A stretch of 64,000 nt of DNA, taken from NCBI GenBank assembly GCA_018241405.1, contig JAFEDY010000022.1:124001-188000 (forward strand), read 5' to 3'. This DNA comes from Pseudomonadota bacterium. GTDB lineage: Bacteria; Pseudomonadota; Gammaproteobacteria; Burkholderiales; Burkholderiaceae_C. The notes beneath the pieces are model-generated. The model saw only the letters and a program-made list of their open reading frames with translations. It was not told where the DNA came from and did not search any database. Both the position numbers and the translations under genes were made by a program. Positions 23,092-58,352 of the stretch are shown here, in pieces. Each line of letters starts with the position of its first letter. Within the stretch, counting starts at the first letter, position 1.

Positions 23092-23100
23092 GCCGCCCCC

Positions 23101-24048: not shown

Positions 24049-24444
24049 GACATCCGCTCCTTACTTTGTGTCGCTTTGACTCCGGGCCGATCGCCGACGA
24101 CCCAGCCCGATCTCGAATACCTGCAGCGAAGTCTAGAGGAGCGAACTACCACGTACTGCGCCTCATCGAGTCAGATGGGGCCTTTGCCATTTCATTTTTG
24201 GCCAACCGCACCTCACCTATTCAGCAGCGCGAAAAGGCTGTGTACCCCCTGTATCCGCGCTTTCAACAGACCTAGCGGGAAGGTACTTCGGACTGTCCGT
24301 ATCTGCCATTACTCCGGCCAGTTCCGAAACTCGGAAGCGAGACTGCCGACCTGTGCGCTCCCTAGAATGAATTCCGGCATGGGGGCATCAAATGCAGAGC
24401 ACGCCCATCGTTTTTTCCCAGAATGAATCACGCAGAGGACAAAC
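24049..24444. promoter_or_regulatory. divergent promoter region between the etfA run and the long plus-strand operon
   Basis: About 395 bp without a gene, separating two divergent catabolic operons. It contains small perfect dyads: CGGACTGTCCG at 24289-24299 and TTCCGA-AAC-TCGGAA at 24322-24336. These are candidate regulator sites for the AraC- or LuxR-type proteins of the island; which one binds is not known. Confidence 0.45.
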
Positions 24445-34980: not shown

Positions 34981-35859
34981 ATGAAACCGGCACCCTTCGA
35001 GTACTACGCCCCGTCCTCGCTGACCGACGCGGTTGATCTGCTCGCCCAACTCGACGCCGACGGATGCGACATGAAGATCATCGCCGGGGGGCAGAGCCTC
35101 ATGCCAATGCTTGCGTTACGGGTAGCGCGACCCGAGGCGCTGGTCGACCTCCGTTTGCTCGGGGAGCTTGACTACATCCGCAAGCAAGAGGACGGTACGC
35201 TCGCAATCGGCGCCATGACGAGCAAGCAGGCTGCGGTGGATTCGCCGCTGGTCAAGGACGCGCAACCGCTGTTCCATGCCGCCACGGAGCTAGTGGGCCA
35301 CCGCCAGATCCGCAACAGAGGATCGGTCGGCGGATCCTTCGCGCATGCCGATCCCGCTTCGGAGTATCCCGCTGTGGCGCTTGTGCTCGACACCGAATTC
35401 GATGCCAGCGGGCACAACGGCCCACGCACGATTCCTGCGCAGGATTTTTTCGTCACCTACATGACCACTGCGCTCGAATCCACCGATATCCTCACCGCGG
35501 TGCGCTTTGCGCCTTTCCCGTATGGACGCCGCTGGGCCATCCAGGAGTTCTCGCGCCGCAACGGTGATCTCGCGCTCGCCGGTGTGGCCCTTGCCTTCAA
35601 TATCGAAGCTGGCTTGTGCCGCGACGTGCGCATTGCAGCCTTTGGCGTCGAGGCGACCGCCGTCCGCCTGACTGCGGCCGAGCAGATGCTCGAAGGACGC
35701 CCTGCGCAGGGCGTCGAGTTCGAACGCGCGGGCAAGATTGCGGCGGCGGCGCTCGATGATCCGATGAGTTGCATCCATGCCTCGTCCGAATACCGTCGCC
35801 ATCTCGTTGGTGTACTGACCGCACGCGCGCTTGGCGAAGCCGCCGCACGCAGCAACTGA
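34981..35859 (+). CDS. molybdenum hydroxylase FAD subunit (CoxM/HcrB-like)
   Basis: 292 residues of the medium subunit of xanthine dehydrogenase-family enzymes. FAD is bound by AGGQSLMPMLALRVARPEALVD (IAGGQSLMPML) and TELVGHRQIRNRGSVGGSFAHADPA. It passes electrons from the Mo centre via the Fe-S subunit to an acceptor. First gene of the order M-S-L (FAD, Fe-S, Mo), as in carbon monoxide dehydrogenase clusters, but see the large subunit. Confidence 0.9.
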   Translation: MKPAPFEYYAPSSLTDAVDLLAQLDADGCDMKIIAGGQSLMPMLALRVARPEALVDLRLLGELDYIRKQEDGTLAIGAMTSKQAAVDSPLVKDAQPLFHAATELVGHRQIRNRGSVGGSFAHADPASEYPAVALVLDTEFDASGHNGPRTIPAQDFFVTYMTTALESTDILTAVRFAPFPYGRRWAIQEFSRRNGDLALAGVALAFNIEAGLCRDVRIAAFGVEATAVRLTAAEQMLEGRPAQGVEFERAGKIAAAALDDPMSCIHASSEYRRHLVGVLTARALGEAAARSN

Positions 35860-36393: not shown

Positions 36394-38811
36394 ATGGCGA
36401 TCGAAATTCCCACCCTGCCAGACCAGATGCCGAACGACGCGCCGCGCTACGTCGGGAAAGCGGTCAACCGCGTTGAAGACCCAGCCCTCGTCTCGGGAAC
36501 AGTCCAATTCATCGACAACCTTTCTCTGCCGGGCATGCTGCACTGCGCGATCCTACGCAGCCCACATCCCCATGCCCGCATCGTGTCGATTGATGTGGAC
36601 GCAGCGCTGTCCGCCGAAGGCGTCGCCGCGGTACTCACCGGCGAAGACGTGCGGCGCTGGACCAACCCCTGCTTCACCGCCCCTGAAGGATGGGGCAACT
36701 ACTGCATGGCGGTGGACAAGGTGCGTTTCGTCGGAGAGCCGGTCGTGGCCATCGCGGCAAGCAGCCGCTACCTGGCCGAAGACGCGCTCGAACTAGTGAC
36801 TATCGAGTACGAGCCGCTCCCGCCGGTGGCCAGCCCCGAGCAGGCGATGGCACCCGGCGCACCCGTCATTTTCGAGGAGCGTGGCACCAACGTCATCTTG
36901 AGCCGCACCTACACCTGGGGCGAACTGGATCGCGTGTTCTCGCAAGCCGATCGTGTGGTGAGCCGGCGCTTCCGCTGGAACCGCGTGGGTGCGAACCCAA
37001 CCGAAACCTTCGGCTGCATTTGCCAGTGGGACTTTGCCGACAACAGCCTCACCTGCCACGGCTCCTACCAGACTCCTCGCTTCATGGCCATCGGCCGGGC
37101 AGCTTCCCTGAATCTGCCGACAAACCGCATCCGCATCGTCCCCCACCCGCAAGGTGGCGGTTTCGGTGGTAAGGGTGGACCGCGCGGCACCGACATTGCG
37201 GCCCTGCTGTCCCGCAAGGCGCGGGGACGCCCCGTCAAATACATCGAGGATCGCATGGAGTACCTGCTCGCCGGTGGCGGGCAGTCCTGGGACCGCTATT
37301 ACGACGCTGCGCTCGCGGTTATGGCTGATGGGAGTGTCACAGGCTTCCGGGTTCGTCTGGTGGACGACCAGGGCGCAGGCGCCGAGGGCTACGGAACGAT
37401 CTCCGCTGCGAAGCCCCTGGCAGCATTCACCGGCAACTATCGCATCGAGGCAGCCGGCTACGATCTCACTCTGGTGGCGACGAATCGCGCGCCAACCTAT
37501 CCCTACCGCGGCTACGGCCCCCCTCCGCACAACCTGGTACTTGAGTCGCTGATGGACTGCACGGCACGCGAGCTGGGCATCGACCCGGCCGAGCTGCGCC
37601 GCCGCAACTACATTCGCCCGGAACAGTTTCCCTACACGGTGCCCAGCGGCAACGAATACGACAGCGGCAACTACGAGGCCGTACTGGATCGCGTCCTCGA
37701 TCTGGCCGACTACAAGGCCATGCGCACACGCCAGGCCGAGGCCCGCGCCCAGGGAAGACTGGTCGGTATCGGCGTGGTAAGTACCGTCGAGCCCGGGGTC
37801 TTTGACTGGAACGCGTATGCCACCGTTGGGGTTCCCGGCGTCGGCGTGCCGGAGGGCGTGAAGGTCGCGGTCGATCTGTTTGGGAACGTGACCGTGGCCG
37901 TGGGCTTCAACCTGCAAGGACAGGGGCAGTTCACTGTCGCCGCGCAGGTCGCAGCCGACTACTTCGGCATCGACATCGCACAGGTTCGCATCGCGAGTAC
38001 GCCCTCGGACGTTGCGCTGCCCCACTTCGGGCAGGGTGGCAGCCGCCTGGGCGTCGCGGTCACCGGGGCGACCCTGGGCGCATGCGAAAAGCTACGGGCG
38101 ACTTTTTGCAAGGTCGCGGCACACGTGATGCAGGCGCCGGAGGATTCCGTGGCGCTGCGCAACGGTCGCCTGCACCGCATCGACGCGCCCGGGCATTCCA
38201 TGTCCCTGGCCGAGGTCGCAGGCCTGATGCTGTCGCGCACCGACCTGCTGCCGCCAGGCGTCGAGCCCTGCCCCGAGGCGACCTACGTGTGGGCCTCGCC
38301 CAACCGTAACGCGCCGGATGACCAAGGTCGCTGCCGCAGCTACCTCACTGCTGCCAACGCCACCCATGTCGCGCTGATCGAGATCGACCACGACACCGGT
38401 CGCACCCAGATACTGGACTACGCCATCGTCGACGACTGCGGCACACGCCTCAACCCGGCCAGCGTCGAGGGCCAGCTGCAGGGCGGCGTCGCCCAGGGCG
38501 TCGGTGCGGCGCTATATGAGGAGTATGTCTACGACGCCGACTGCCAGCCGCTCGTGAGCACCTTCGTCGACTATCTGATCCCGACCATCCATGAAGTCCC
38601 GATGACGAGAAAGGATCACATCGTCACGCCATCGCCGGTCACGCCGCTGGGCGCGAAGGGTTGCGGTGAAGGCGCAATCCACACCACGCCGGCGACTATC
38701 CTGTGTGCCATCAATGACGCCCTCGCGCCGCTGGGCAAGGAACTGCTCGAAACACCGGCGTCGCCCCACCGCATTTGGAAGCTGCTTCACCAAAATGGGC
38801 CGGCGGCTTGA
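36394..38811 (+). CDS. molybdenum hydroxylase large subunit (xanthine dehydrogenase family, not CO dehydrogenase)
   Basis: 805 residues, large molybdopterin subunit. GGGFGGKGG binds molybdopterin, and the C-terminal GAKGCGEGA carries the base glutamate. The active-site loop around residues 367-377 reads PTYPYRGYGPP, not the AYxCSFR of true aerobic CO dehydrogenases, so CO oxidation is unlikely. It probably hydroxylates a C-H bond of a pathway intermediate, using water as oxygen source. The cofactor is probably molybdopterin cytosine dinucleotide (family knowledge). A maturation gene (xdhC type) exists only as a broken piece at 52.4 kb. Confidence 0.9.
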   Translation: MAIEIPTLPDQMPNDAPRYVGKAVNRVEDPALVSGTVQFIDNLSLPGMLHCAILRSPHPHARIVSIDVDAALSAEGVAAVLTGEDVRRWTNPCFTAPEGWGNYCMAVDKVRFVGEPVVAIAASSRYLAEDALELVTIEYEPLPPVASPEQAMAPGAPVIFEERGTNVILSRTYTWGELDRVFSQADRVVSRRFRWNRVGANPTETFGCICQWDFADNSLTCHGSYQTPRFMAIGRAASLNLPTNRIRIVPHPQGGGFGGKGGPRGTDIAALLSRKARGRPVKYIEDRMEYLLAGGGQSWDRYYDAALAVMADGSVTGFRVRLVDDQGAGAEGYGTISAAKPLAAFTGNYRIEAAGYDLTLVATNRAPTYPYRGYGPPPHNLVLESLMDCTARELGIDPAELRRRNYIRPEQFPYTVPSGNEYDSGNYEAVLDRVLDLADYKAMRTRQAEARAQGRLVGIGVVSTVEPGVFDWNAYATVGVPGVGVPEGVKVAVDLFGNVTVAVGFNLQGQGQFTVAAQVAADYFGIDIAQVRIASTPSDVALPHFGQGGSRLGVAVTGATLGACEKLRATFCKVAAHVMQAPEDSVALRNGRLHRIDAPGHSMSLAEVAGLMLSRTDLLPPGVEPCPEATYVWASPNRNAPDDQGRCRSYLTAANATHVALIEIDHDTGRTQILDYAIVDDCGTRLNPASVEGQLQGGVAQGVGAALYEEYVYDADCQPLVSTFVDYLIPTIHEVPMTRKDHIVTPSPVTPLGAKGCGEGAIHTTPATILCAINDALAPLGKELLETPASPHRIWKLLHQNGPAA

Positions 38812-38998: not shown

Positions 38999-40279
38999 GT
39001 GAGCAAACCCGACCTTTCCGAAGGCCCGCTGGCCGGCCTGCGCGTACTCGACCTCTCCACCATGCTTGCCGGCCCCTACGGCGCCACCCTGCTTGGCGAT
39101 CTCGGCGCCGACGTCATCAAGGTGGAATCGCCCTACGGCGACGAGAGCCGCCACCTTGGGCCCAGGCGCGGCGAGGAACGCGGCCCCTACCTCAGCCTCA
39201 ACCGCAGCAAACGCGCCATCGTGCTGGATCTGCAGCAGGCCGACGCCCAGACCGTGTTCGCCCGCCTGGCGGCAACATCCGACATCCTCGTCACGAACAT
39301 TCGCGAGCCTGCACTGAGCAAGCTCGGTCTCGACTACGAACAGGTGCGCAAGCACCGGCCCGACATCATCTGGATCCGTGTCACCGCCTTCGGCGCTGAT
39401 GGGCCCTATGCCGGCCGCCCCGGAATCGACTTCCTAGCCCAGGGATATACCGGCGTCCTCACCTTGAACGGAGCACCCGACGGCGAGCCGGTGCGCACCG
39501 GCTTCCCAGCGGTCGATGTGATGACCTCGTTGCTGGTGAGCAACGCTGCGCTCGCCGCGCTGCGTGCGCGCGAACTTACCGGCGAGGGTCAACGCATCGA
39601 AGTCTCGCTGCTCGATGCTCTGATGCACGCGCAGGCGAGCTCGATCGGAACCTACCTTGCGACTGGCGACCGCCCGATGCGCACAGGCAACCGCAGCCTC
39701 TACTTCGCGCCGTCCGGCGTATATCCGACGCGCGACGGCAAACATGTCGTGATCACGACGCCAGGAGAGAAATTCTTCGTCAAGGTATGTCGGGCATTGG
39801 GCACCGACTGGGATACCGATCCGCGTTTCCACGACATCGACGCACGGCTTGCGAACCAGGACGAACTCGATCGCGTGATGGCGGAGCACACACGCCGCTT
39901 CGATCGGGAGGAACTGGTCGCCAGGCTGATTGCAGCCGATGTGCTCACCGCGCCGATCAACGAAGTCGAGGATGTGATCAAGGACCCGCAGATTCTGCAC
40001 AACCGCATGATCGTGCCCGTCGAACACCCCGAACTCGGTCGCATCGATGTCACCGGAATTCCAGTGCGCTTCTACGGCACTCCCACCGAGGTGCGCAAGC
40101 ACCCGCCCATGCAGGGCGAGCACACGCGCGAACTGCTTGCCGAGCTGGGCTACGCGCAAGGCGAGATCGACACCCTCATCACCGCCGGCCTTGCAGCCGA
40201 CCACCTGGAGCTGCGCCGCCTGCGCGCCGAACGCAGCAGTGCGCGCACAAGCCGGCTGAGCAGACAGGCTGGGTCGTGA
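38999..40279 (+). CDS. class III CoA-transferase, copy 4
   Basis: 426 residues from GTG at 38999 with AAGGA before it. VLDLSTMLAGPYGATLLGDL is a clean class III start, followed by GADVIKVESPYGDESR, LNRSKRAIVLDLQQA and WIRVTAFGADGPYAGRPGID. It ends the long plus-strand operon. Its C-terminal tail (LRAERSSARTSRLSRQAGS) is a basic extension. Unpaired, so perhaps a second activation or a CoA-recycling step. Confidence 0.88.
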   Translation: MSKPDLSEGPLAGLRVLDLSTMLAGPYGATLLGDLGADVIKVESPYGDESRHLGPRRGEERGPYLSLNRSKRAIVLDLQQADAQTVFARLAATSDILVTNIREPALSKLGLDYEQVRKHRPDIIWIRVTAFGADGPYAGRPGIDFLAQGYTGVLTLNGAPDGEPVRTGFPAVDVMTSLLVSNAALAALRARELTGEGQRIEVSLLDALMHAQASSIGTYLATGDRPMRTGNRSLYFAPSGVYPTRDGKHVVITTPGEKFFVKVCRALGTDWDTDPRFHDIDARLANQDELDRVMAEHTRRFDREELVARLIAADVLTAPINEVEDVIKDPQILHNRMIVPVEHPELGRIDVTGIPVRFYGTPTEVRKHPPMQGEHTRELLAELGYAQGEIDTLITAGLAADHLELRRLRAERSSARTSRLSRQAGS

Positions 40280-41724: not shown

Positions 41725-42243
41725 ATGTCAACACACGAGCGGGACAAGATGGTGAAGCCGGACTACATGTCCGACGCGGACTGGGAGGGGCTCAAGGCAG
41801 CGACGGCATCGCTCGAGCGCATTCGCGGCGACGCGAAGGCCGATGTAGCGCGCTATCTCGCCAACCCGGATGGCTGGTCAACCGGGACGGGTTCGCCTTC
41901 CGGCCTGCCCACCCTGCTGCTCACCATGGTCGGTCGCAAGTCCGGAGAGAAGCGGACTACGCCGCTGGTCTTTCTCCAGGATGGAGGGAACATGGTGGTG
42001 GTGGCCTCACTTGCCGGTTACGACCAGGATCCAGCGTGGTTCCTCAACGTGACGGCAAACCCTGAGTGCTGGGTTCAGTGTGACCGCAACCGGATGACTG
42101 CTATCGCGCATCAGGCGAGTGATGAGGAACGTAAAGCGCTTTGGCCTCGCCTTGTGGAGCTGTTCCCCACCTGGGGCTATTTCCAGGCGCAGACCGATCG
42201 CCCGTTCGGGATCGTGGTACTCGTCCCGACCGGTGAGGCCTGA
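41725..42243 (+). CDS. deazaflavin (F420)-dependent nitroreductase-family protein (DDN type)
   Basis: 172 residues with the DDN/split-barrel pattern: LPTLLLTMVGRKSGEKRTTPLVF, then VVVASLAGYDQDPAWFLNVTANPECWVQC (key parts MVGRKSGEKRTTPLVF and DPAWFLNVTANPECWV). In actinobacteria such proteins bind F420H2 and reduce quinones, nitro-imidazoles or enones. Finding one next to an OYE homologue in a betaproteobacterium is notable. Start at 41725 with CTGGAGG upstream. It is the third kind of F420-linked enzyme in this window. Confidence 0.85.
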   Translation: MSTHERDKMVKPDYMSDADWEGLKAATASLERIRGDAKADVARYLANPDGWSTGTGSPSGLPTLLLTMVGRKSGEKRTTPLVFLQDGGNMVVVASLAGYDQDPAWFLNVTANPECWVQCDRNRMTAIAHQASDEERKALWPRLVELFPTWGYFQAQTDRPFGIVVLVPTGEA

Positions 42244-42308
42244 GACGGTACGTCAGGCGGGCATCGATGGCCCCGCCTGCCGTACCGGTGAAACCGGAGG
42301 AGATATTC

Positions 42309-44306
42309 ATGAGCAATGTGAAGTTCGAGCATCTGTTCTCGCCGCTGCAGGTCGGACCGATGAGGGTGCCCAATCGAATCTGTGAAACCACGAACACGAT
42401 CAATTCATCGCGGGCACCTGGGCTGATCGACGAGCATTTCATTGCCCATCACGGCGCGAAGGCCAAAGGGGGCACCGGCTGGATCGGCAGCGAGACTTGG
42501 CTGCTCAATCTTCCCTTTCCCGAAGGCGCACCGGATGAGGTGTCCTTGCGCGGTGGTTTCGGCTCCCACTTTGCGGCGCATCAGAATCCGGCGTTCATCG
42601 AGGGCTGGGCGCGCTTCGTGGAGGAAATCCACTCCAGTGGTTCGGTCGTGGTGGTTCAGCTAACGCATCTGAATGCCCTGTGGGCACCGTCGCCGGTGCC
42701 GGTGGTTGGTGCGCAGGACTACACCCCGCACGTCCTTGGCGAGAAGGAGATTGAGTTCCTCCTTGAGGGCTACGCCGACGCGGCCGAAGCGGCGATGAAG
42801 AGCGGAGCGGACGGGGTGGAGATCCACTGTGCGCACGAAACAGTGGGCTACAGCTTCCTGTCACCAGTGACCAACCGCCGCACCGACCAATGGGGAGGCG
42901 GGCCGAAGGAGCGAGTGCGCTTCGTGATCGAGGCCTTGCGTCGCGTGCGTTCGCGAGTCGGAGACAAGCTCGCGGTCGGCATTCGCATCAACGGGCAGGA
43001 GTCGCGCGAAGGAGGTTACGACAACATCGAGCTTCGCGAGATGCTCTACTACATCGCCGAGACCGGCTTGCTTGATTTCGTCGACCTTGATGTGGGACAT
43101 TGCTGGGGGGCGCCGTCCTATGTGCCTTCGTCCTACCATCCTCACGCCGAATACCGTGAATTCGGCAAGGCGGCGCGTTCGGACATGGCCGAATTCGATC
43201 GCAAGATTGCCGTCTTGTTCACTGGTCGCATCAACGACACGGTACTGGCCGAAGAACTGCTCAAGGGCGGCTTTTGCGACTTAGTCGGCATGGTCAGGGC
43301 CGGCATCGCCGATCCCGAGTTCGCCAACAAGGCACGTGAAGGGCGCATGAACGAGATCCGCCGCTGCATCGCATGCACGCGATGCATTGACGAGGCGTCG
43401 GAACCGATGACGATTCCCTACGCTCCCACGTGTTCTATCAATCCTGAAATCGGCAACGAACTGCACTGGCGGGATCACTTCCGCCCCGCAGCGCAGCCGG
43501 GGCATGTGGTGGTGGTCGGCGGTGGCGCTGCGGGTTGCGAGGCCGCCAGAATCGCTGCCATACGTGGTCACAAGGTAACGCTGCTCGAACGGGGCAAGCG
43601 CCTGGGCGGCCAGTTGCTGATCGCCGCGCGCGCGCCCGGGCGTGATTCCTTCGAGGATCAGGTGTATTTCGAAGAAAACGCACTTGAGCGCCTTGGGGTC
43701 GAAGTTCGCCTGCAAACATGCGCTGATGTGGACATGATCAAGTCGCTCGCGCCGAGCGCGGTGGTTGTGGCCACCGGGGCTTTGCCACGGCTTCCCGCAG
43801 AAGTGGCCGGCATTGATCTGCCGCACGTGGTTCAAGGCTGGGATGCGCTGCTTGGAAAGGTCGAAACTGGAAAGCGAGTGGCAGTGGTGTCGCAGGAGGA
43901 CTACTACCAGACGCCCTGCGTGGCCGAATATCTCGCCGCGCAAGGCAGGCGGGTAGAGGTGTTCCACAAGTCGGTTCATCTCGCCACCGAGGTTGCACGC
44001 TACTCTATCGGCATGGTGCTCAAGCGCATGGAGCAGTGCGGGGTGGTGGTGCATCCGAACCGCGTACTCAAGGCAGTGCAGGCGGATGGGCTTGAGTTCG
44101 TATCCGCCTGGGGTGACCGAACCTACCGTGAGCAGGGCTTTGACACTGTGGTGCTGGTGTACGGCGCCATCCAGCAATCAGCCTTGTATTATCAGCTGCA
44201 GGCGGAGCCCGGTATTCCCCGCGTGTTCCTGGCTGGCTCGGCCTGGGTGCCTCGACGTCTGGCGGAAGCGACCCGTCACGGTTCGAGCGTCGGCATGTTA
44301 CTCTGA
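42309..44306 (+). CDS. OYE/Fe-S/FAD reductase (2,4-dienoyl-CoA reductase- or BaiH-like)
   Basis: 665 residues from the ATG at 42309 (SD GGAGG). Three parts: an FMN-binding OYE barrel (LFSPLQVGPMRVPNRI; VTNRRTDQWGG), a four-cysteine [4Fe-4S] site (C353, C356, C359, C375), and a C-terminal FAD/NAD(P)H domain beginning with VVVVGGGAAGCEAARIAA near residue 400. The set matches 2,4-dienoyl-CoA reductase, bile-acid BaiCD/BaiH reductases and the naphthoyl-CoA reductase group, all of which reduce conjugated C=C bonds. Which one is not decided. In line with ddn after the AraC gene. Confidence 0.87.
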   Translation: MSNVKFEHLFSPLQVGPMRVPNRICETTNTINSSRAPGLIDEHFIAHHGAKAKGGTGWIGSETWLLNLPFPEGAPDEVSLRGGFGSHFAAHQNPAFIEGWARFVEEIHSSGSVVVVQLTHLNALWAPSPVPVVGAQDYTPHVLGEKEIEFLLEGYADAAEAAMKSGADGVEIHCAHETVGYSFLSPVTNRRTDQWGGGPKERVRFVIEALRRVRSRVGDKLAVGIRINGQESREGGYDNIELREMLYYIAETGLLDFVDLDVGHCWGAPSYVPSSYHPHAEYREFGKAARSDMAEFDRKIAVLFTGRINDTVLAEELLKGGFCDLVGMVRAGIADPEFANKAREGRMNEIRRCIACTRCIDEASEPMTIPYAPTCSINPEIGNELHWRDHFRPAAQPGHVVVVGGGAAGCEAARIAAIRGHKVTLLERGKRLGGQLLIAARAPGRDSFEDQVYFEENALERLGVEVRLQTCADVDMIKSLAPSAVVVATGALPRLPAEVAGIDLPHVVQGWDALLGKVETGKRVAVVSQEDYYQTPCVAEYLAAQGRRVEVFHKSVHLATEVARYSIGMVLKRMEQCGVVVHPNRVLKAVQADGLEFVSAWGDRTYREQGFDTVVLVYGAIQQSALYYQLQAEPGIPRVFLAGSAWVPRRLAEATRHGSSVGMLL

Positions 44307-44789: not shown

Positions 44790-45770
44790 TCACGTGTCCT
44801 TCGGTGCGCGCTTGGTCGGCTCGATGCCGGTCAAGCGGGCCAGGTTCAGCCCCAGGATGTTGGCCTTGTCCTGCTCGCTGAGCTGGGTGTAGCCCCACTT
44901 CTCCTGCAACTCGTGTGGCATGTCGAAGTAGCGGATGTAGTCGGTGACACGCTGTAGGTCATCGAACGGCAGGTCGAAGCCGAGCACGATCTTCTCGGAG
45001 TTCATCCACTGCAGCGCGGTACCGATCGCATGATAGCCGCGATAGGGCGCACGTTGGTACCAGCCGATGATGCCCGAGATGCTCATGTACAAGTTCTTGT
45101 GTTTGCCGCATAGACCGATCAGCTCCTCGGTGTCAGGCCAGCCGGCGTGATAGGCGATCACCTTCAGCTCGGGGAAGTCGAGCATGATGTCGTCGAGTTG
45201 GCCGACCGCGCAACGGTTGCTTGGCTGCGGACACACGTAGCTCATGCCGGTGTGGATGGTAAGCGGCACACCCAGCTCTTGTGCCTTCTCGTAGAACGGC
45301 CACATGCGGCGATCGTTCAGTGCTGCCTCGTCCTCGGGCGCATAGACCTTACACAGGCGGGCGTCGCGCTCCTTCACCAAGTATTCCAGCTCCCAGATCG
45401 CATGCTTGAGCCCGCGCTTGACCACCGGGCCGCAGTTGGCCTCGAGGTACATGCGACCGGGATAGGGCTCAATCTGCTGTAGCATGAATCCGTTGGTCGA
45501 CATCGACACCGTGCCGCCGGTGATGTCCATCATTGGCTCGCGCAGGCAGAACGCCACGTCGATATTGGCCTGATCCATGTACTTGATTAGCTCGCTTGCG
45601 ACCGGCGACGGCCACTCGCTGTCGAGGTCGCGACCGGCCCATGCACGCAGCACCCCGTTGACGCTGTCGTGGAAGTGCTTCATTCCGGGGTAGTAGCCGA
45701 TTTCACTCATGGTCTGCAGGTTCATGAAGTGGAACTCGGTCATCGCGACGAAATAGTCTTTCTCTGCCAT
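44790..45770 (-). CDS. amidohydrolase-family protein (COG2159 type)
   Basis: 326 residues of the amidohydrolase-2 family, which includes decarboxylases and hydrolases of aromatic or cyclic acids. Metal or catalytic residues visible are His in LTIHTG, His in AYHAGWP, and Asp in LGFDLPFDD; the N-terminal H-x-H of many members is not obvious (EFHFMN). Last gene of the minus-strand run starting at 51658. Could hydrolyse a cyclic acyl derivative; not testable from sequence. Confidence 0.8.
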   Translation of the reverse strand: MAEKDYFVAMTEFHFMNLQTMSEIGYYPGMKHFHDSVNGVLRAWAGRDLDSEWPSPVASELIKYMDQANIDVAFCLREPMMDITGGTVSMSTNGFMLQQIEPYPGRMYLEANCGPVVKRGLKHAIWELEYLVKERDARLCKVYAPEDEAALNDRRMWPFYEKAQELGVPLTIHTGMSYVCPQPSNRCAVGQLDDIMLDFPELKVIAYHAGWPDTEELIGLCGKHKNLYMSISGIIGWYQRAPYRGYHAIGTALQWMNSEKIVLGFDLPFDDLQRVTDYIRYFDMPHELQEKWGYTQLSEQDKANILGLNLARLTGIEPTKRAPKDT

Positions 45771-45809: not shown

Positions 45810-46589
45810 TCAGTGCCCGATGTAGTGGGGCTTGCGCTTCTCGGCGAAGGCACGCGGACCTTCCTGCGCATCCTCGGATGCGAAGACGCGTGCCGACATC
45901 GTCTTCTCGAGTACGAAGGCGGGTTCGTTGTTGAGCGCGCGCAGCGCGATTTCCTTGGCGGTGCGTACCGCCAGCGGTCCGTTCTCGCAAATTCGCTGCG
46001 CATAGGCGAACGCCTCGTCCATGAGCTTGTCCGCCGGCACGACCTTGTTGATCAGCCCGACCTCGTAGGCGCGTTGCGCGTCGATCGTGTTACCGGTGAG
46101 CAGCAGTTCCATCGCGATCGCCCATGGGATCTGCTGCGGCAAACGGATATGCGATCCACCTGCGGGCACGACAGCCCAGCGGACCTCGGCGAGACCGAAC
46201 TTTGCAGTATCGACCGCGATGCGGATGTCGGTGCCGAGCATGAACTCCAGCCCGCCCGCAACACACATGCCGTTGATGGCGGTGATGATGGGCTTGAAGT
46301 TGCGTTGGAAGGGGCGCTTGGCCGGATCCTCGTAGCCAAGCGCATCGCCATCATTGAGGGCGGGCAGCGCCGCCTTCATATCCAGACCGGTGCAGAACGA
46401 CCTGTTCCCAGCCCCGGTGAAAATCGCGACGCGCAGCGCCGGGTCCGCTTCGAAGTCGTTGAAGGCTGCCTCCAGGCCGATCAACATATCCTTGGTAAGC
46501 GAGTTCATTGCGTCGGGGCGATTCATGGTGATGATCGCGATCGAACCGCGCTTTTCGTACACCACACTTTCGGGCAAATTCAGTTCCAT
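45810..46589 (-). CDS. enoyl-CoA hydratase, copy 2 (classical glutamate pair)
   Basis: 259 residues from the ATG at 46589, preceded by AGGAGACGAG; the longer frame to 46676 is unlikely. Crotonase fold with oxyanion hole GNRSFCTGLDMK and GMCVAGGLEFMLG. Both hydratase glutamates are in place: FGLAEVRWAVVPAGG and IAMELLLTG. So a true enoyl-CoA hydratase is likely. Lies between the amidohydrolase and the DUF35/Ltp pair. Confidence 0.88.
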   Translation of the reverse strand: MELNLPESVVYEKRGSIAIITMNRPDAMNSLTKDMLIGLEAAFNDFEADPALRVAIFTGAGNRSFCTGLDMKAALPALNDGDALGYEDPAKRPFQRNFKPIITAINGMCVAGGLEFMLGTDIRIAVDTAKFGLAEVRWAVVPAGGSHIRLPQQIPWAIAMELLLTGNTIDAQRAYEVGLINKVVPADKLMDEAFAYAQRICENGPLAVRTAKEIALRALNNEPAFVLEKTMSARVFASEDAQEGPRAFAEKRKPHYIGH

Positions 46590-46651
46590 CTCGTCTCCTG
46601 TCGTCATCGTGTTGCGGGGCCGCGATCGGTGCGTGCGGCAACCCGCGGCTT

Positions 46652-47077
46652 TCAAACCCTCGACCGCCTGAAGCATGGCAGCCAGACGTTTTCCGTAACC
46701 TGTGTCAGGGAAAGCTCCACAGGCATGTCAATCTCGAGCGCCCCAGGGGCACAGTCGATCACCCGAGTGAGCAGGCGCACACCTTCGTCGAGCTCGACGA
46801 TCACCGGCGCAAAGGGTGCTTCGTCCGCAAAGGCCGGGTGCAGCGGGCGCACCACCTCGGTCCACGAGAAGACCTTGCCACGTCCGCTCACGCGCGACCA
46901 CGTCCAGTCGGATGATCCGCAGTGCGCGCACATCTCGCGCGGGACATGCCGATGGCGGCCACACCCCGCGCAACGCTGGATTCGCAATTCGCCCTGCGCG
47001 CACCACTGATAGAACTCGCCTGCGAGGCCGGTGCGCGCGGGAAGGGGTTTGCCATATCCCGCTGGTCGTTCGCTCAT
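46652..47077 (-). CDS. DUF35 OB-fold zinc-ribbon protein, second copy
   Basis: 141 residues: zinc ribbon CAGCG and CAHCG, then OB-fold GKVFSWTEVVRPLHPAF and APVIVELDEGVRLLTRVID. Located just downstream (21 bp) of the second Ltp gene, mirroring the pair at 21.5-23.1 kb. Expected to form a complex with that Ltp protein and contribute CoA binding. Confidence 0.87.
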   Translation of the reverse strand: MSERPAGYGKPLPARTGLAGEFYQWCAQGELRIQRCAGCGRHRHVPREMCAHCGSSDWTWSRVSGRGKVFSWTEVVRPLHPAFADEAPFAPVIVELDEGVRLLTRVIDCAPGALEIDMPVELSLTQVTENVWLPCFRRSRV

Positions 47078-47097: not shown

Positions 47098-48261
47098 TCA
47101 GCGGCGCAGGACGGCGATGCTTCCGTCGCCAAAATCGCCCCAGCCTGTCACGACGCCAATCTCTGCGTCGGGCACCTGGCGTGCATCGGCCTCGCCGCGC
47201 AGTTGGCGCACTGCCTCGACGACATGGCCAATGCCAAGCACGTGCGCTTGCGAGAGCAGGCCGCCATGGGTATTCACAGGCAAGCGCCCGCCAAGCTCGA
47301 TGCCGCCGTTCTCGACGAAGGCACCACCCTCGCCGCGCGCGCAGAACCCGGCTTCCTCGAGCTGCTGGATGACCTCAAAGGTGAAGCAGTCGTAGATCTG
47401 TGCGAAATCCGCATCCTGCGGCGTAACGCCCGCCATGCGAAAGGCCTCGGGCGCCGCGGTGGTGAGCCCGATGCGATGAAAGTCTGGACGACCGCAGATC
47501 TCGTCGGCCGGATAGGGCTGGCTCGCCGCCGCACCCATGATGAAGACAGAGCGCTGCCGCAGATCACGCGCACGCTCGGCGCTGGTCACGATGAATGCGG
47601 CCGCGCCATCGGTCTCGAGGCTGCAGTCGAACAGGCGGTAGGGCGACGAAATCATCGGTGAGGCGAGGTACTGCGCCATATCGAGCGGCTTGCCGTACAT
47701 CACCGCGGCCGGATTGAGCTGCGCGTGGCGACGCATCGCAATGGCCACTGCGCCGAGCTGTTTCTCGGTAGTGCCGAACTCGTGCATATGTCGGCGCGCC
47801 ATCAGCGCGTACCACTGCGGTGGTGCCGTCAGCCCGAAGGGAAGGTAGAAGTCGCGTGCAATCGCTCCGCCCGGAATGGAATCCACGTCGTTGGCAGCCG
47901 TGTCGCGCACACGCGCACCCGAGTAGCCGTTCCAGCCACCCGGCACCAGCACATGCTCAGCCACCCCTGTAGCGACCGCCATCGCCGCCGTGCGCAGAGA
48001 GCCAACCGGCGCTGCCCCTCCCATGTGCAGGGTCGCGGCAAAGCGTAGATTGGTGCAACCGAGCTCGGCCGCGAGCGCCTCCGCCTTGCCGACATTCGGA
48101 AACGGCATGATGCCGTCGATGTCCGTCGGCCTCAGGCCCGCATCCTCAATCGCCGCCTTTGCTGCTTTGAGCTGGATGCCCATCTCCGAAAGCCCGGAGC
48201 CGGGTTTGCGGCAGAATGGGGTTTCACCGATTCCGACGATGCAAGCCTTGTCGCGCAGCAT
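47098..48261 (-). CDS. lipid-transfer-protein aldolase-like thiolase homologue, second copy
   Basis: 387 residues of the SCP2-thiolase branch. No cysteine occupies the thiolase nucleophile position: the segment reads RFAATLHMGGAAPVGSL. The C-terminal half has YDCFTFEVIQQLEEAGFC and NTHGGLLSQAHVLGIG, which match Ltp2-type proteins. Ltp2-type retro-aldolases use tyrosines rather than a cysteine to split beta-hydroxyacyl-CoA, which fits the missing Cys. Forms a pair with the DUF35 gene at 46652. Confidence 0.83.
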   Translation of the reverse strand: MLRDKACIVGIGETPFCRKPGSGLSEMGIQLKAAKAAIEDAGLRPTDIDGIMPFPNVGKAEALAAELGCTNLRFAATLHMGGAAPVGSLRTAAMAVATGVAEHVLVPGGWNGYSGARVRDTAANDVDSIPGGAIARDFYLPFGLTAPPQWYALMARRHMHEFGTTEKQLGAVAIAMRRHAQLNPAAVMYGKPLDMAQYLASPMISSPYRLFDCSLETDGAAAFIVTSAERARDLRQRSVFIMGAAASQPYPADEICGRPDFHRIGLTTAAPEAFRMAGVTPQDADFAQIYDCFTFEVIQQLEEAGFCARGEGGAFVENGGIELGGRLPVNTHGGLLSQAHVLGIGHVVEAVRQLRGEADARQVPDAEIGVVTGWGDFGDGSIAVLRR

Positions 48262-48264
48262 GGC

Positions 48265-49194
48265 TCAGCCCCCCACCACCGCGGGCGGATGCTCGGCCTG
48301 GTAGGCATCGAGCAGCCCCTGCCGCGCGCCGGCCTCGCGCTCGCGCAACGCCCAGAACCCAGGTTTGCGCTTGGCGAGGAAGGCCGCGCCCCCCTCCTTG
48401 CCCTCGGGCATGTCGAACCAATCAGGGTACATCGCCGCCGAGGTCACGCAGGACTCGCGGTAGCCTTCCATCTCCTGATCGAATGCAGCCTTGAGCACCT
48501 CGAGGCAGCCGGGGCTCTTTTCGAGCAGTTCAACGCACCAGCGATCCACCTCGGCCTCTAGTTCGTCGAGTGGCACCACAGTATTCACCAACCCCATATC
48601 GAGCGCCTGCTCAGCCTTGTACTTGCGGCACAGCATCCACATCTCGCGCGCCTTCTTGGCGCCTATCACCTTGGTCAGATAGGGCACGAAGAAGCCGTCC
48701 GCAGGCGAGGACACCTTTGGACCAGCCTGGCCGAACACAGCGTTGTCGGCGGCAATGGTGAAGTCGCAGCAGTAGGCCATGTGGTTGTGTCCGGCGATGC
48801 AGTAACCCTGTACCTGAGCTATCACCGGCTTGCGCGACAGGCGAATCAGGCGGTTGTGCGGATAGCGGTTGTAGAAGGCTTCGCGCAGGCCCCAGCGCTC
48901 CCATTCCACATCCCCACCTGCACCGAAATGCTTGCCCTTTCCCGCCACTACGATGACCCCGACCATCGGGTCGTGGTTGGCATCGTAGAAGGCTCGGAAC
49001 ATCTCATCGACCGTCGCCAGCGTGAGCGTGTTCATCTTGTCCGGCTTGTTGAGCGAGACGCGGGCAATGCGCCCTCCGCTCGCCAGGTGCTGCTTCTTCT
49101 CGTAGATGATCTCGGCAAAGTCATCCATGCCTTCGCCATCCACCTGCTCCCAGGCGCCCCACTCGGTTGCGCCACATTCGTCGGTCACGCTCAT
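48265..49194 (-). CDS. crotonase, MenB/BadI-like (possible alicyclic ring-opening hydrolase)
   Basis: 309 residues from the ATG at 49194 (AAAGAG upstream; an ATG 15 bp earlier is also possible). The sequence GKGKHFGAGGDVEWE, VFGQAGPKVSSPADGFFVPYL, AKKAREMWMLCRKYKAEQAL and DMGLVNTVVPLDELEAEVDR follows the MenB (naphthoyl-CoA synthase) pattern. BadI, which opens 2-ketocyclohexanecarboxyl-CoA, belongs to this branch. In a cluster without menaquinone genes, ring opening is the better guess. Ends 4 bp before ltp2 starts. Confidence 0.85.
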   Translation of the reverse strand: MSVTDECGATEWGAWEQVDGEGMDDFAEIIYEKKQHLASGGRIARVSLNKPDKMNTLTLATVDEMFRAFYDANHDPMVGVIVVAGKGKHFGAGGDVEWERWGLREAFYNRYPHNRLIRLSRKPVIAQVQGYCIAGHNHMAYCCDFTIAADNAVFGQAGPKVSSPADGFFVPYLTKVIGAKKAREMWMLCRKYKAEQALDMGLVNTVVPLDELEAEVDRWCVELLEKSPGCLEVLKAAFDQEMEGYRESCVTSAAMYPDWFDMPEGKEGGAAFLAKRKPGFWALREREAGARQGLLDAYQAEHPPAVVGG

Positions 49195-49246: not shown

Positions 49247-50455
49247 TCAGGGAATCGCACCCTTGGCCTTCATTGCCTCGATCTCGCCCCACTCGTAGCC
49301 GAGCAGTTCCATCATCACCAGCTCAGTGTCCTGACCGAGCTGAGGCCCGAGGTGGTGCACCTCGCCTGGCGTTTTCGACAGGGTGACGGGCAGTCCACGG
49401 ATGTCGACCTCGCGCTGCACCTCCTCGCACCAAGCCTTCATGAAGTAGTTGTTGCGCCAGGCCTGCTCGTCGCGGATGACGTCGGCGAGGTTATTCACCG
49501 GGCTCGCCACCAATCCTTCGCGGTGGAACGCATCCATCAGGGTCTGGTGATCGTGGCATAGGGCATGCGCTTCGATGACCTCGATCAGCGCTTCGTTGTG
49601 CTCGCGGCGGCCTGCTGCACTCGCAAAACGCGAATCAGTGGCCAGCTGTCTATCGCCGAGCGCACGGCAAAGCGCGGCCCAGCGTCCATCCTCGTTCGGC
49701 TCGCATAGATAAACCCACTTGCCCAAGGACGGATACAGGTTCCATAGCGGGTTCTCCACCTGCTTGCGCGATTGCTGCAGCGCCGCGGATTCGTTACCGG
49801 CCAGGAAGGACTGCAGGAAAGGCGCGGCCAGGAACAGCTGCGCCCCATACAGAGAGGCGTCCAGGCACTGGCCGCGCCCGGTGCGCTTGCGCTGATAGAG
49901 CGCAAGCACGATACCAAGTGCCGACATGATTCCACCATAGGCGTCGCCCGATCCCATTCCGAGGTAGATCGGCGGCTCACCTGGCTCGCCAAGGCGAGCC
50001 ATGATCCCGGTGAGCGCTTGCACTGTCATGTCGAAGGATGGCTTCGATACATCGCCCTTGCGACCGTAGCCAGTATTGGTCGCATAGATGATGTCCGGCT
50101 TGATCGACTTGAGCTTCTCGTACGACAACCCCCAGCTTTCGAGCAGGGAGGGTGCGAGATTCGACAGGAATACGTCGGATTCGACTACCAAGCGGTACAT
50201 GATCTCGCGCCCGCCCTCAGTCTTGAGGTCGAGCGCGACACTCTTCTTATTGCGATTGATGACCAGGAAGTACTGGTTCCAGTCACCTATCTCGAGCGAC
50301 TTGATCGAGCGCACGCCACGCGCCTGGTCGCCACCCTGGGGGCGTTCGATCTTGATCACCTCGGCACCGAAGTCGGCCAGGTACTGTGCCGAAACCGGCC
50401 CCTGGAACCAGACCGTCAGGTCGAGGACGCGTATGCCTTCCAGCGCTCTTGCCAC
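49247..50455 (-). CDS. class III CoA-transferase, copy 5 (second of a pair)
   Basis: 402 residues. VLDLTVWFQGPVSAQYLADFGAEVIKIERPQGGDQ (core VLDLTVWFQGPVSAQYLADF) and later NRNKKSVALDLKTEGGREIM, ATNTGYGRKGD. The preceding gene on the same strand is another class III transferase (22-bp gap), so this is the second adjacent pair of the island. Likely half of a hetero-oligomer. Confidence 0.88.
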   Translation of the reverse strand: MARALEGIRVLDLTVWFQGPVSAQYLADFGAEVIKIERPQGGDQARGVRSIKSLEIGDWNQYFLVINRNKKSVALDLKTEGGREIMYRLVVESDVFLSNLAPSLLESWGLSYEKLKSIKPDIIYATNTGYGRKGDVSKPSFDMTVQALTGIMARLGEPGEPPIYLGMGSGDAYGGIMSALGIVLALYQRKRTGRGQCLDASLYGAQLFLAAPFLQSFLAGNESAALQQSRKQVENPLWNLYPSLGKWVYLCEPNEDGRWAALCRALGDRQLATDSRFASAAGRREHNEALIEVIEAHALCHDHQTLMDAFHREGLVASPVNNLADVIRDEQAWRNNYFMKAWCEEVQREVDIRGLPVTLSKTPGEVHHLGPQLGQDTELVMMELLGYEWGEIEAMKAKGAIP

Positions 50456-50476: not shown

Positions 50477-51658
50477 TCATGCCACCACACCTGCGCGTCG
50501 GCAGGCATGGACAGCGTCTTCCGAATAGCCGAGCAGGTCGCGCAGGATCTGCGACGAGTGCTGGCCGATACAAGGCGCTAGCGCGTCGAGGCGCGCAGTG
50601 CCTTCGCTCAGAAAGATCGGAAATCCCAGGCTCTTCACTGCGCCGAAGCTGGGGTGCTCAAGCTCCAGGATGTAGCGGTTCGCCAGCGCTTGCGGATCGG
50701 AAGCCGGGAAATCGAAACGTTCGATGACGTCGGCTGACATCTGCTTCTCCAAAAACACCTGGCGCCAGTGCGCGCCGGGCTGTGTCGCAAATGCCGCCTC
50801 GAGCGCATGGATGAGCTCGATCCGGTTCATCTCGGTGCGCTTGTCGTGTGTGTCGAAACGCGGATCGTCTTCAGCCAAACCGACCGCAGTCGAGAATATC
50901 GGCCACCAGCGGTCGGTATCGGGCATGGTGAGTGTGACCCAGCGCCCGTCGGCACTCGGATACAAGGCGCCCGACATCGGGTTGGAGACGTCCAGGCGCG
51001 AGATCGGATTGAGCAGCCGATCACCCTTGCCGATGGCCAGGAAGGCCTGGATATCGAGTGCCGCGCCGTACATGTTGGCGCCGAACAGTGACACATCCAC
51101 CGCCTGCCCCTCGCCGGAATCGGCACGGTGCAACAGCGCAGTGACCACGCCGAAGGCGAGCATCGCGCTGGAGTGCATAGCCCCCGCACCGGTGAATACG
51201 GGCGGCTGTCCGGGCTGCGGCAGGATCGGCATTATCCCAGTGCGTGCGGCGGCCAGCTCGTCGATTGCCGGCAGTTCGCAGTCCGGCCCGACAGGCCCGA
51301 AACCCGACAGACGCCCGAACACGATGTCCGGGCGCAAGGCGCACGCCCGCTCGTAGTCGATGGCGAGTGCTTTCAGCTCGGCCGCGCTCCAGTCCGTCAC
51401 CACGACATCTGCCTTAGCAATCAGTTCGCGTAGCACGCTGACGCCTCGATCCCCATTCAGATCAAGGGCGATGCTCTCTTTGTTGCGGTGAGTGAGGTCG
51501 GCTTGGTAATTCCAGCCCTGCGCCGTACGCACGGTTGGCGCAAGGCTATCGACACGGATGACGCGGGCGCCGAAATCGGCAAGGAAAGCCGCACTCAGCG
51601 AGGCGCAGAACAGGCTTGTGAGGTCGATCACGACCACATCTTCGAGCGGACGACTCAT
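50477..51658 (-). CDS. class III CoA-transferase, copy 6 (first of a pair)
   Basis: 393 residues. VIDLTSLFCASLSAAFLADFGARVIRVDS, then THRNKESIALDLNGDRGVSVL and FGRLSGFGPVGPDC show a class III transferase. The start has an unusual CASLSA instead of the AGPxxA of most members, suggesting it is the divergent subunit of the pair. First gene of the minus-strand run. Confidence 0.86.
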   Translation of the reverse strand: MSRPLEDVVVIDLTSLFCASLSAAFLADFGARVIRVDSLAPTVRTAQGWNYQADLTHRNKESIALDLNGDRGVSVLRELIAKADVVVTDWSAAELKALAIDYERACALRPDIVFGRLSGFGPVGPDCELPAIDELAAARTGIMPILPQPGQPPVFTGAGAMHSSAMLAFGVVTALLHRADSGEGQAVDVSLFGANMYGAALDIQAFLAIGKGDRLLNPISRLDVSNPMSGALYPSADGRWVTLTMPDTDRWWPIFSTAVGLAEDDPRFDTHDKRTEMNRIELIHALEAAFATQPGAHWRQVFLEKQMSADVIERFDFPASDPQALANRYILELEHPSFGAVKSLGFPIFLSEGTARLDALAPCIGQHSSQILRDLLGYSEDAVHACRRAGVVA

Positions 51659-54691: not shown

Positions 54692-55729
54692 ATGTCTTCG
54701 ACTTCTGGCTGTGCTTCGATCACGGCAGACAGGCTCACCGAACTCGCCCTTGAGTCGGCCTACTCGAGCGCGGTTTCGCCGCTGAACGGCCCCTGCTGTC
54801 TGCTCGTCGATCTGAGCGACGGCGGCGCCGAAACTTCCGGGTTGCAGCCGCGCCTACAGCAATGGCTGGCGGCGCAGGCTGGCCCAGTGATCGGCGTCGG
54901 CGGCGCGACTGTCGTCCGGCATGAACTCGGCGCAGCCTGCGATCTCGTCCTCGATGACGACAAGGGGCTGGGCACGCTGCTGGACAACATCACGCAGGCG
55001 CCCTTCACTGCAATGACGCTCGTGCAGGTTCTGCGCGTGACCGAGAAGATGCCCGCCACACAGGCACTCACTGTGGAATCGCTCGCATACTCCACATTGC
55101 AGTCGGGCGCGGATTTTCGCCGCTGGTTCGCGGCCCGTCCGTCTGAACCGCAGCGCCCTTCGACCGATGACGGCCCACCGCTCCTCATCGAACGCCGCAA
55201 CAGCGCGCTGAAAATCAGACTGAACCGTCCTTCCATCCGCAATGCAATGACCATCGAGATGCGCGACGCGCTGGTCGAAGCGCTCGAGCTTTCCGTCATC
55301 GACGACAGCATCAAACACATCGAGGTGAGCGGCCTTGGAGCCTGCTTCTGCACCGGTGGAGCGCTCGAGGAGTTCGGTAGCGCCTCCGACCCGGCCACTG
55401 CCCACGCAGTACGCAGCCTCCGCCTACCTGCGGCCACCCTGCTATGCAGCGCTGCATCTACCCGGTTTCATGTGCATGGCGCCTGTATCGGCTCGGGCAT
55501 CGAGTTTCCAGCCTTCGCCCACCATCTGAGCGCCAGCCCGGGCAGTTTCTTCCAACTCCCGGAGATCCGCTTCGGCCTCATTCCCGGCGCCGGCGGCTGC
55601 GTCAGCATCCCGCGCCGAATCGGCCGGCAGCGTACTGCGTACCTGGCACTCTCCGCTCGTCGCATCAATACAAGCACCGCACTCGAATGGGGTCTGATCG
55701 ACGAGATGACGCCGGCCGCGGCTCGTTAG
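54692..55729 (+). CDS. crotonase-family protein with degenerate N-terminal half, C-terminus short
   Basis: 345 residues. The second half (about 165-345) is a crotonase with LNRPSIRNAMTIEMRDAL, GACFCTGGALEEF, HGACIGSGIEFPAFAHH and QLPEIRFGLIPGAGGC, keeping the first catalytic Glu. The N-terminal 150 residues resemble a worn crotonase repeat (GPVIGVGGATVVRHELGAACDLV and LESAYSSAVS). It ends at GLIDEM plus seven residues, about 60 short of a normal crotonase end. Either a truncated gene or an unusual two-domain family. Follows coxG-like gene by 47 bp. Confidence 0.7.
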   Translation: MSSTSGCASITADRLTELALESAYSSAVSPLNGPCCLLVDLSDGGAETSGLQPRLQQWLAAQAGPVIGVGGATVVRHELGAACDLVLDDDKGLGTLLDNITQAPFTAMTLVQVLRVTEKMPATQALTVESLAYSTLQSGADFRRWFAARPSEPQRPSTDDGPPLLIERRNSALKIRLNRPSIRNAMTIEMRDALVEALELSVIDDSIKHIEVSGLGACFCTGGALEEFGSASDPATAHAVRSLRLPAATLLCSAASTRFHVHGACIGSGIEFPAFAHHLSASPGSFFQLPEIRFGLIPGAGGCVSIPRRIGRQRTAYLALSARRINTSTALEWGLIDEMTPAAAR

Positions 55730-57671: not shown

Positions 57672-58343
57672 ATGGAACAGACAATCGCAGTCGTCGGCGG
57701 AACGGGAAACCTCGGCGCAGCACTTGCACGACGCTGGGCGAAGGCGGGCAGACAGGTGATCATCGGTTCCCGCACCGCTGCTAAGGCTCAGGAAGCCGCC
57801 GAGCATCTGAGCGCCGGGCTGGATACCGTGATCCGGTACGCCTCCAATCTGGAGGCCGCGCGCGCGGCAGACGTCATCGTCGCGACCGTGCCCTTCTCCT
57901 CCCAGTCGGCCGTGCTTGAAGAAATCCGCCCCGCCCTAGCCGGCAAGATCCTAATCGACACCACCGTTCCTCTCGTTCCACCCAAGGTCGCGCGCGTACA
58001 GTTGCCCGCTGAGGGCAGCGCCGCCCAGCGTGCGCAGCGGCAGCTCGGCGAGGGTGTGCGGCTAGTTTCCGCGTTCCACAACGTTGCCGCCCACAAGCTC
58101 GCCACCGACCAGGTCGTGGAATGCGACGTGCTTGTCTTCGGCGATGACAAGGCGGCACGGGCGGTCGCCGTGGACCTCGCCGACTGCGCAGGGCTGCGCG
58201 GACTGCATGCGGGCGGGCTGGCCAACTCCGCCGCGGCAGAGGCACTGACCTCAATCCTCATCTTTCTCAACAAGACCTACAAGGTGGATGGCGCGGGCAT
58301 CCGTATCACCGGTCAGCTTGATCGTTCGGCAGCTGCGGATTGA
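57672..58343 (+). CDS. fno: NADPH:F420 oxidoreductase
   Basis: 223 residues. N-terminal Rossmann GGTGNLGAALARRWAKAG (GxGxxG variant) and the family segments GSRTAAKAQEAAEH, TVPFSSQSAVLEEIRPALAG, LIDTTVPLVPPKV and SAFHNVAAHKLATDQ. It passes hydride between NADPH and F420, here presumably to give F420H2 for the LLM and DDN enzymes. First gene of the operon; 9 bp before cofE. Alternative names in the literature are npdG and fno. Confidence 0.9.
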   Translation: MEQTIAVVGGTGNLGAALARRWAKAGRQVIIGSRTAAKAQEAAEHLSAGLDTVIRYASNLEAARAADVIVATVPFSSQSAVLEEIRPALAGKILIDTTVPLVPPKVARVQLPAEGSAAQRAQRQLGEGVRLVSAFHNVAAHKLATDQVVECDVLVFGDDKAARAVAVDLADCAGLRGLHAGGLANSAAAEALTSILIFLNKTYKVDGAGIRITGQLDRSAAAD

Positions 58344-58352
58344 GGCCTAACG

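What the first reader, a model, noticed from the sequence alone, without database searches (positions are those of the whole stretch)
48265..49194. MenB/BadI-like crotonase suggests an alicyclic ring-opening step
Sequence follows the MenB branch that contains BadI. There are no other menaquinone genes here, and the neighbours are CoA-transferases and a retro-aldolase pair. So a beta-keto-cycloalkane-carboxyl-CoA hydrolase is plausible, which would tell that the substrate contains a saturated ring.
Basis: inference. Interest (0 to 1): 0.6.

Follow-up and report, generated by a model that had tools for sequence, protein, structure and literature searches.

The report
Crotonase of anaerobic steroid ring degradation
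This gene encodes a MenB-like enzyme with a changed active site that sits in the gene cluster bacteria use to take steroids apart without oxygen, where it may help open one of the steroid rings, a step whose enzyme was still unnamed in the reviews we could read.

Summary
The gene is real: 309 aa, minus strand, 48265-49194, third of a tight seven-gene operon. It belongs to the MenB branch and has no menaquinone context. It is neither MenB nor BadI: it scores far below both cut-offs, forms a separate clade (100/100), and has Ala and Phe at the MenB/BadI catalytic Asp and Tyr in 81 of 81 homologues, with an invariant His138 and a one-residue-shifted Asp166. [quoted passage not shown] Homologues (58-91%) keep the same partner genes in Thauera, Azoarcus, Aromatoleum, Myxococcota, Acidimicrobiia, Binatota and Chloroflexi. 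My lead is a C-C (retro-Claisen) hydrolase after the retro-aldol step, i.e. ring B, called unknown in a 2021 review; the amidohydrolase beside atcA is the better ring A candidate. The reaction is not shown; a CoA-ester reaction is a strong rival. A 2025 paper on a ring A beta-diketone hydrolase exists but could not be read.

The parts
48265..49194 (-). MenB-branch crotonase (309 aa), subject of the finding
50477..51658 (-). family III CoA-transferase (CoAT50), operon
49247..50455 (-). family III CoA-transferase (CoAT49), operon
47098..48261 (-). thiolase-like protein (Ltp type), putative retro-aldolase subunit, 3 bp downstream of the crotonase
46652..47077 (-). DUF35/ChsH2-type zinc ribbon and OB-fold protein, partner of the Ltp protein (adjacent in 46 of 47 loci that hold both)
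45810..46676 (-). enoyl-CoA hydratase of EchA19 type with both catalytic Glu positions conserved
44790..45770 (-). amidohydrolase (PF04909) with conserved metal-site residues; adjacent to atcA in other phyla; best ring A hydrolase candidate
36394..38811 (+). molybdopterin large subunit, atcA (1-testosterone hydratase/dehydrogenase) by published primer sites at 36496 and 37642-37668
   Evidence: primers from PMC5554518
35769..36377 (+). 2Fe-2S subunit of the same molybdoenzyme (start codon not settled)
34981..35859 (+). FAD subunit of the same molybdoenzyme
38999..40279 (+). family III CoA-transferase next to atcA (CoAT38)
41725..42243 (+). F420H2-dependent quinone reductase-like protein
42267..44306 (+). 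OYE-type flavin oxidoreductase, adjacent to the previous gene in 14 of 14 loci that hold both

Best explanation
[quoted passage not shown] SHOWN: gene, operon, atcA identity of the neighbouring molybdoenzyme by primer sites, conservation of the partner genes across phyla, separate clade, altered active site (pathway membership alone: about 0.93). INFERRED: it acts after CoA activation and retro-aldol loss of acetyl-CoA, and cleaves a C-C bond by a retro-Claisen reaction, most likely opening ring B of the 1,5-dione left by the aldolase (2,5-SDAT). The oxyanion hole (Gly94/Gly135) would hold the carbonyl under attack; His138, with Asp166 and perhaps Glu99, would activate water and protonate the leaving enolate carbon. 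The adjacent amidohydrolase would be the ring A (1,3-dione) hydrolase acting straight after AtcABC.
For: Published atcA degenerate primers match at 36496 (3 mismatches) and 37642-37668 (0), product 1173 bp against about 1100-1200 reported. The literature's atcABC carriers, T. butanivorans, T. terpenica, Azoarcus and Aromatoleum, are among the top named homologue carriers, and Azoarcus Aa7 (L082) uses the 2,3-seco pathway. Of 80 loci, 65 have at least 3 of 10 partner genes within reach. In 50 of the 80 genomes tested, atcA is in 45 and the amidohydrolase in 46; atcA is in 1 of 369 genomes of the class, our own. Gene neighbours: crotonase adjacent to CoAT49 in 26 of 57 loci and to Ltp in 23 of 48, to atcA in 0 of 35; amidohydrolase adjacent to atcA in 23 of 27. 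Reviews call the ring A hydrolase unidentified (2019) and ring B cleavage unknown (2021).
Against: No activity data. The residues are not those of the crotonase beta-diketone hydrolases (His at the Glu164 position; here Gly158, with His138 at the Glu144 position). The C-terminal Phe272 (80 of 81, one gap) and Lys275 (73 Lys, 7 Arg, one gap of 81), equivalent to CoA contacts in other crotonases (recalled), suggest a CoA ester rather than a free diketone. Sister proteins lie beside CoA enzymes, one beside a methylmalonyl-CoA-mutase-like gene, as does homologue L153, whose genome lacks atcA and the amidohydrolase at the thresholds used. Eight of 80 loci show none of the 10 partners.
Confidence: 0.42

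Rival explanations
1. It is a hydratase, isomerase or other enolate enzyme acting on a CoA ester of the A/B-ring stage, such as a derivative of DSAO-CoA, and breaks no C-C bond.
For: CoA-contact motif kept; sister family and L153 sit beside CoA enzymes; operon with CoA-transferases and aldolase; Asp166 stands where dienoyl-CoA isomerase has its Asp (recalled).
Against: The operon already holds a hydratase with both catalytic Glu positions conserved; the MenB branch is known for Claisen-type chemistry.
Confidence: 0.25
2. It is the ring A 1,3-dione hydrolase that turns androstane-1,3,17-trione into the 2,3-seco acid, possibly the enzyme of Jacoby et al. 2025.
For: The step is hydrolytic and its enzyme was unidentified in 2019; crotonase-fold beta-diketone hydrolases exist.
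Against: Adjacent to atcA in 0 of 35 loci, the amidohydrolase in 23 of 27; residue set differs from the known crotonase diketone hydrolases. The 2025 paper was not readable.
Confidence: 0.15
3. BadI-type 2-ketocycloalkanecarboxyl-CoA hydrolase.
For: Same branch, 38-45% identity to 8 BadI; Asp166 is one residue from BadI's Asp and could stand in for it if the loop holds paired indels (inference from the alignment).
Against: Separate clade; 209 bits against a cut-off of 467.6; Phe at the Tyr position; no such intermediate in the published A/B-ring steps.
Confidence: 0.08
4. It is the EchA20-type ring D hydrolase of the C/D-ring stage.
For: EchA20 clusters with MenB and opens a steroid ring by reverse Dieckmann (PMC5380842).
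Against: The genome has another crotonase (L165:7605-8528) near a PF01144 CoA-transferase-family gene and next to a FabK/IpdC-like gene, the EchA20 position; it is 30% identical to ours. EchA20 is about 28% identical to MenB, ours 41-43%.
Confidence: 0.03
5. A menaquinone naphthoate synthase (MenB).
For: Best hit by sequence and fold.
Against: No menD over the cut-off, Asp and Tyr positions changed, below the MenB cut-offs, outside the MenB clade (99/99).
Confidence: 0.01

Closest known systems
[quoted passage not shown]
   Same: Fold (Z about 29), 41-43% identity, CoA-contact C-terminus
   Different: Ala at the catalytic Asp, Phe at the Tyr, invariant His138; steroid cluster instead of men genes
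2-ketocyclohexanecarboxyl-CoA hydrolase (BadI)
   Same: Branch, 38-45% identity, presumed ring opening by enolate chemistry
   Different: Separate clade; Asp/Tyr changed; no cyclic beta-ketoacyl-CoA at this stage of the pathway
6-oxocamphor hydrolase / Anabaena beta-diketone hydrolase (crotonase fold)
   Same: Superfamily, and the reaction type proposed here
   Different: In the Anabaena enzyme the catalytic His sits at the Glu164 position; here that position is Gly158
EchA20, steroid ring D hydrolase
   Same: MenB-clustered crotonase that opens a steroid ring
   Different: Different stage; another gene in this genome occupies its position
2,3-seco anaerobic androgen/cholesterol gene clusters (atcABC, acd3-acd5 of Sterolibacterium)
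   Same: atcABC, CoA-transferases, acetyl-CoA acetyltransferase plus small protein plus hydratase, F420 genes
   Different: No MenB-like gene is named in the part of the Figure 11 legend of PMC6678751 that I read

Membership tests
BadI | Score above the TIGR03210 cut-off (467.6) | tested here: not met
   209 bits
BadI | Catalytic Asp and Tyr of the MenB/BadI type (identity of residues recalled) | tested here: not met
   Ala165 and Phe260 in 81 of 81, Asp and Tyr in 8 of 8 BadI rows; caveat: Asp166 one residue away, loop pLDDT 58
BadI | Falls in the BadI clade | tested here: not met
   own clade 100/100, 98/99 branch apart; the 8 BadI rows themselves are not resolved as one clade
BadI | Hydrolyses 2-ketocyclohexanecarboxyl-CoA | not testable with these tools
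   needs an assay
MenB | Score above the MenB cut-offs (380, 342.7) | tested here: not met
   229 and 201 bits
MenB | Menaquinone genes in the genome | tested here: not met
   menD: 0 of 4 matches over the cut-off; of the men genes only menD and menB models were run
crotonase beta-diketone hydrolase (OCH/ABDH) | His at the Glu164 position with Asp 9 residues on, plus Glu and N-terminal His | tested here: not met
   Gly158 at that position in 81 of 81; a substitute His138/Asp166 pair exists
crotonase beta-diketone hydrolase (OCH/ABDH) | Structural nearness | tested here: inconclusive
   3q1t, reassigned as diketone hydrolase in PMC3584854, has Z 25.7 against 29.4 for MenB
2,3-seco steroid cluster | atcABC | tested here: met
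   primer sites, three subunit types
2,3-seco steroid cluster | Growth on steroid without oxygen | not testable with these tools
   strain unnamed
EchA20 | Located with ipdAB/ipdC | tested here: not met
   that place is held by L165:7605-8528

The most novel reading that the evidence does not exclude
The crotonase is the missing ring B-cleaving hydrolase of oxygen-independent steroid degradation, with a new His138/Asp166 active site on the MenB scaffold, in a pathway spread by gene transfer over at least Pseudomonadota, Myxococcota, Actinomycetota, Binatota and Chloroflexota.
Probability: 0.3. Interest if true: 0.75.

Novelty: new variant of a known kind. Interest (0 to 1): 0.5.

Why it matters
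Steroid rings are broken without oxygen in sewage, sediments and the gut, and the step that opens ring B had no enzyme in the reviews I could read (2019, 2021). A conserved crotonase with an unusual active site in that cluster gives a single gene to test, and its distribution suggests that the pathway reaches far beyond the known denitrifiers.

Tried and rejected
BadI and MenB membership: rejected on cut-offs, clade and residues. Benzylsuccinate-type (bbs) cluster, considered because CoA-transferases, thiolase and DUF35 occur together: BbsA and BbsB models match weakly (27 bits against 250, 96 against 750), and the atcA sites decide for steroids. Monoterpene degradation, considered because Thauera terpenica is a top hit: set aside for the same reason. 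EchA20: another gene holds that place.

Led nowhere: the amidohydrolase and atcA co-occur with the crotonase almost equally (46 and 45 of 50), so co-occurrence does not say which hydrolase opens which ring. The reverse test, atcA carriers without the crotonase, failed because only our own genome of 369 has atcA. BamA was not put in the tree; it is not among the best 25 NCBIfam matches shown of 70. The Foldseek and VIA lists show MenB first and no row named as 6-oxocamphor hydrolase among the 50 shown in each, which excludes nothing.

Limits of the counts: one search kept 80 of 403 relatives; the tree used 26 of 81 homologues, the 8 BadI over the cut-off, and 6 rows labelled MenB, of which 5 were over the menB cut-off and L060 was labelled by me. 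Fisher's p of 3e-55 compares different E-value limits (1e-150 and 1e-250) and MAGs with isolates, so I use it only as a rough contrast. A first tree input had some rows on the wrong strand; corrected before any tree was built.

Full report
Observation. The finding's range holds an intact gene on the minus strand, 49194 to 48265, 309 aa. It is the third gene of a tight operon read leftwards: CoA-transferase 51658-50477, CoA-transferase 50455-49247, crotonase, thiolase-like protein 48261-47098, DUF35 protein 47077-46652, enoyl-CoA hydratase 46676-45810, amidohydrolase 45770-44790; gaps are 21, 52, 3, 20, -25 and 39 bp. The crotonase matches MenB and BadI models best but well under their cut-offs, and its nearest solved structures are MenB. 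An AlphaFold2 model has mean pLDDT 83, with 58 over the active-site loop at residues 161-170, so loop geometry cannot be read from it.

Menaquinone. No menD match over the cut-off in the genome, no second MenB-branch protein.

Phylogeny and active site. A 58-row tree puts 26 homologues in one clade (100/100), joined with six proteins of 42-49% identity from the same order and one further row (98/99), apart from BadI and from MenB (99/99). In 81 homologues, the query included, His138, Ser163, Ala165, Asp166, Phe260, Asp261, Trp98 and Glu99 are present in 81 of 81. BadI (8 of 8) and MenB (6 of 6) rows have Asp where these have Ala165 and Tyr where these have Phe260; that these are the catalytic residues of MenB and BadI is recalled, not from a call. 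Asp166 lies one residue on and could replace the lost Asp if the loop holds paired indels; that remains open. The six sister proteins keep His138 and Ala165 but have Ser or Gly at 166.

What the cluster is. The large molybdopterin subunit at 36394-38811 with its 2Fe-2S and FAD subunits is matched by the published atcA degenerate primer pair (PMC5554518, passages read) at 36496 (3 mismatches) and 37642-37668 (none), 1173 bp apart; 0 of 100 shuffles give a match for either. A stricter search of the whole genome with the forward primer at 2 mismatches finds nothing, as expected from the 3 mismatches. AtcABC is the 1-testosterone hydratase/dehydrogenase of the 2,3-seco pathway (PMC9980454, PMC6208644, passages read). 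The genome also carries a C/D-ring type cluster: an extradiol dioxygenase, a CoA-transferase-family gene, a PRK08290 crotonase, a FabK/IpdC-like protein.

Distribution. A scan of genome contigs found 403 relatives, of which 80 were kept, 58-91% identical, from Thauera, Azoarcus, Aromatoleum, Sterolibacterium, Steroidobacteraceae, Halieaceae, Myxococcota, Acidimicrobiia, Binatota, Acidobacteria and Chloroflexi records. Of 80 loci, 65 hold at least three of ten partner genes at 48% identity or more, and 8 hold none. Of 50 genomes tested out of the 80, 46 have the amidohydrolase and 45 have atcA; three Chloroflexi genomes (L153, L157, L158) lack both, L120 has atcA without the amidohydrolase, L103 and L112 the reverse, at those thresholds. 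In the class, 1 of 369 genomes, our own, has atcA.

Which step. Published steps: AtcABC makes androstane-1,3,17-trione; hydrolysis opens ring A to DSAO (water is the oxygen source, PMC3691188); CoA activation by an unidentified enzyme; desaturation, hydration and retro-aldol release of acetyl-CoA give 2,5-SDAT, a dione whose two ketones flank C-10 (my reading of the name); ring B cleavage to HIP unknown. The operon fits the middle: CoA-transferases, a hydratase with both Glu positions conserved, and the Ltp/DUF35 pair. Two C-C hydrolyses remain, and two candidates: the amidohydrolase, with a conserved Glu-x-His, His, His, Asp set (that these are the metal ligands is recalled) and a weak similarity to a meta-cleavage compound hydrolase, LigY (E 0.08; the name LigY is recalled), and the crotonase. 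The amidohydrolase is adjacent to atcA in 23 of 27 loci; the crotonase is adjacent to atcA in 0 of 35 but to CoAT49 in 26 of 57 and to Ltp in 23 of 48. From this I infer amidohydrolase for ring A and crotonase for a later step, ring B first. The reading of ring B opening as a retro-Claisen reaction of 2,5-SDAT is my own chemical inference.

Against this. The C-terminal Phe272/Lys275 pair is kept and the sister proteins and L153 lie among CoA enzymes, so a CoA ester is a real possibility, and nothing here measures activity. Known crotonase diketone hydrolases use a different residue set (PMC3584854, passages read).

Print status. My searches found no paper in the held library that, in the listings and passages I saw, names a MenB-like crotonase of this cluster. 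Jacoby et al. [quoted passage not shown] it may describe this protein or the amidohydrolase, and the novelty rating depends on it. All papers cited were read as found passages only (PMC9980454, PMC6208644, PMC5554518, PMC3691188, PMC6678751, PMC8399759, PMC3584854, PMC5380842, PMC6016249, PMC12507874).

Noticed in passing
57672-63116: Coenzyme F420 genes (F420-dependent NADP reductase-like, CofE, CofD, CofC, CofGH/FbiC-like) in a proteobacterial steroid cluster; cofC, cofD and cofE are also listed near HIP genes of Sterolibacterium.
   Followed up: partly
41725-44306: F420H2 quinone reductase-like protein and OYE-type enzyme, adjacent in 14 of 14 loci that hold both; candidates for the Delta4 reduction whose enzyme is called unknown in PMC8399759.
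   Followed up: partly
22867-24426: 519-aa ORF without a Pfam match, beside acyl-CoA dehydrogenase and CoA-transferase genes.
   Followed up: no
18337-21432: 1031-aa protein fusing Fe-S domains, cysteine-rich CCG domains and an OYE-type domain.
   Followed up: no
54692-55729: 345-aa ORF whose C-terminal half is a crotonase domain cut off at about profile position 177 of 251, possibly truncated or a fusion.
   Followed up: no
L153:7096-7947 and L030:9544-10311: A homologue and a sister protein of the crotonase lie near methylmalonyl-CoA-mutase-like genes, hinting at a related use outside the atcA cluster.
   Followed up: partly
L165:4548-11104: C/D-ring type cluster with an extradiol dioxygenase, suggesting that the organism has both oxic and anoxic steroid routes.
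   Followed up: partly
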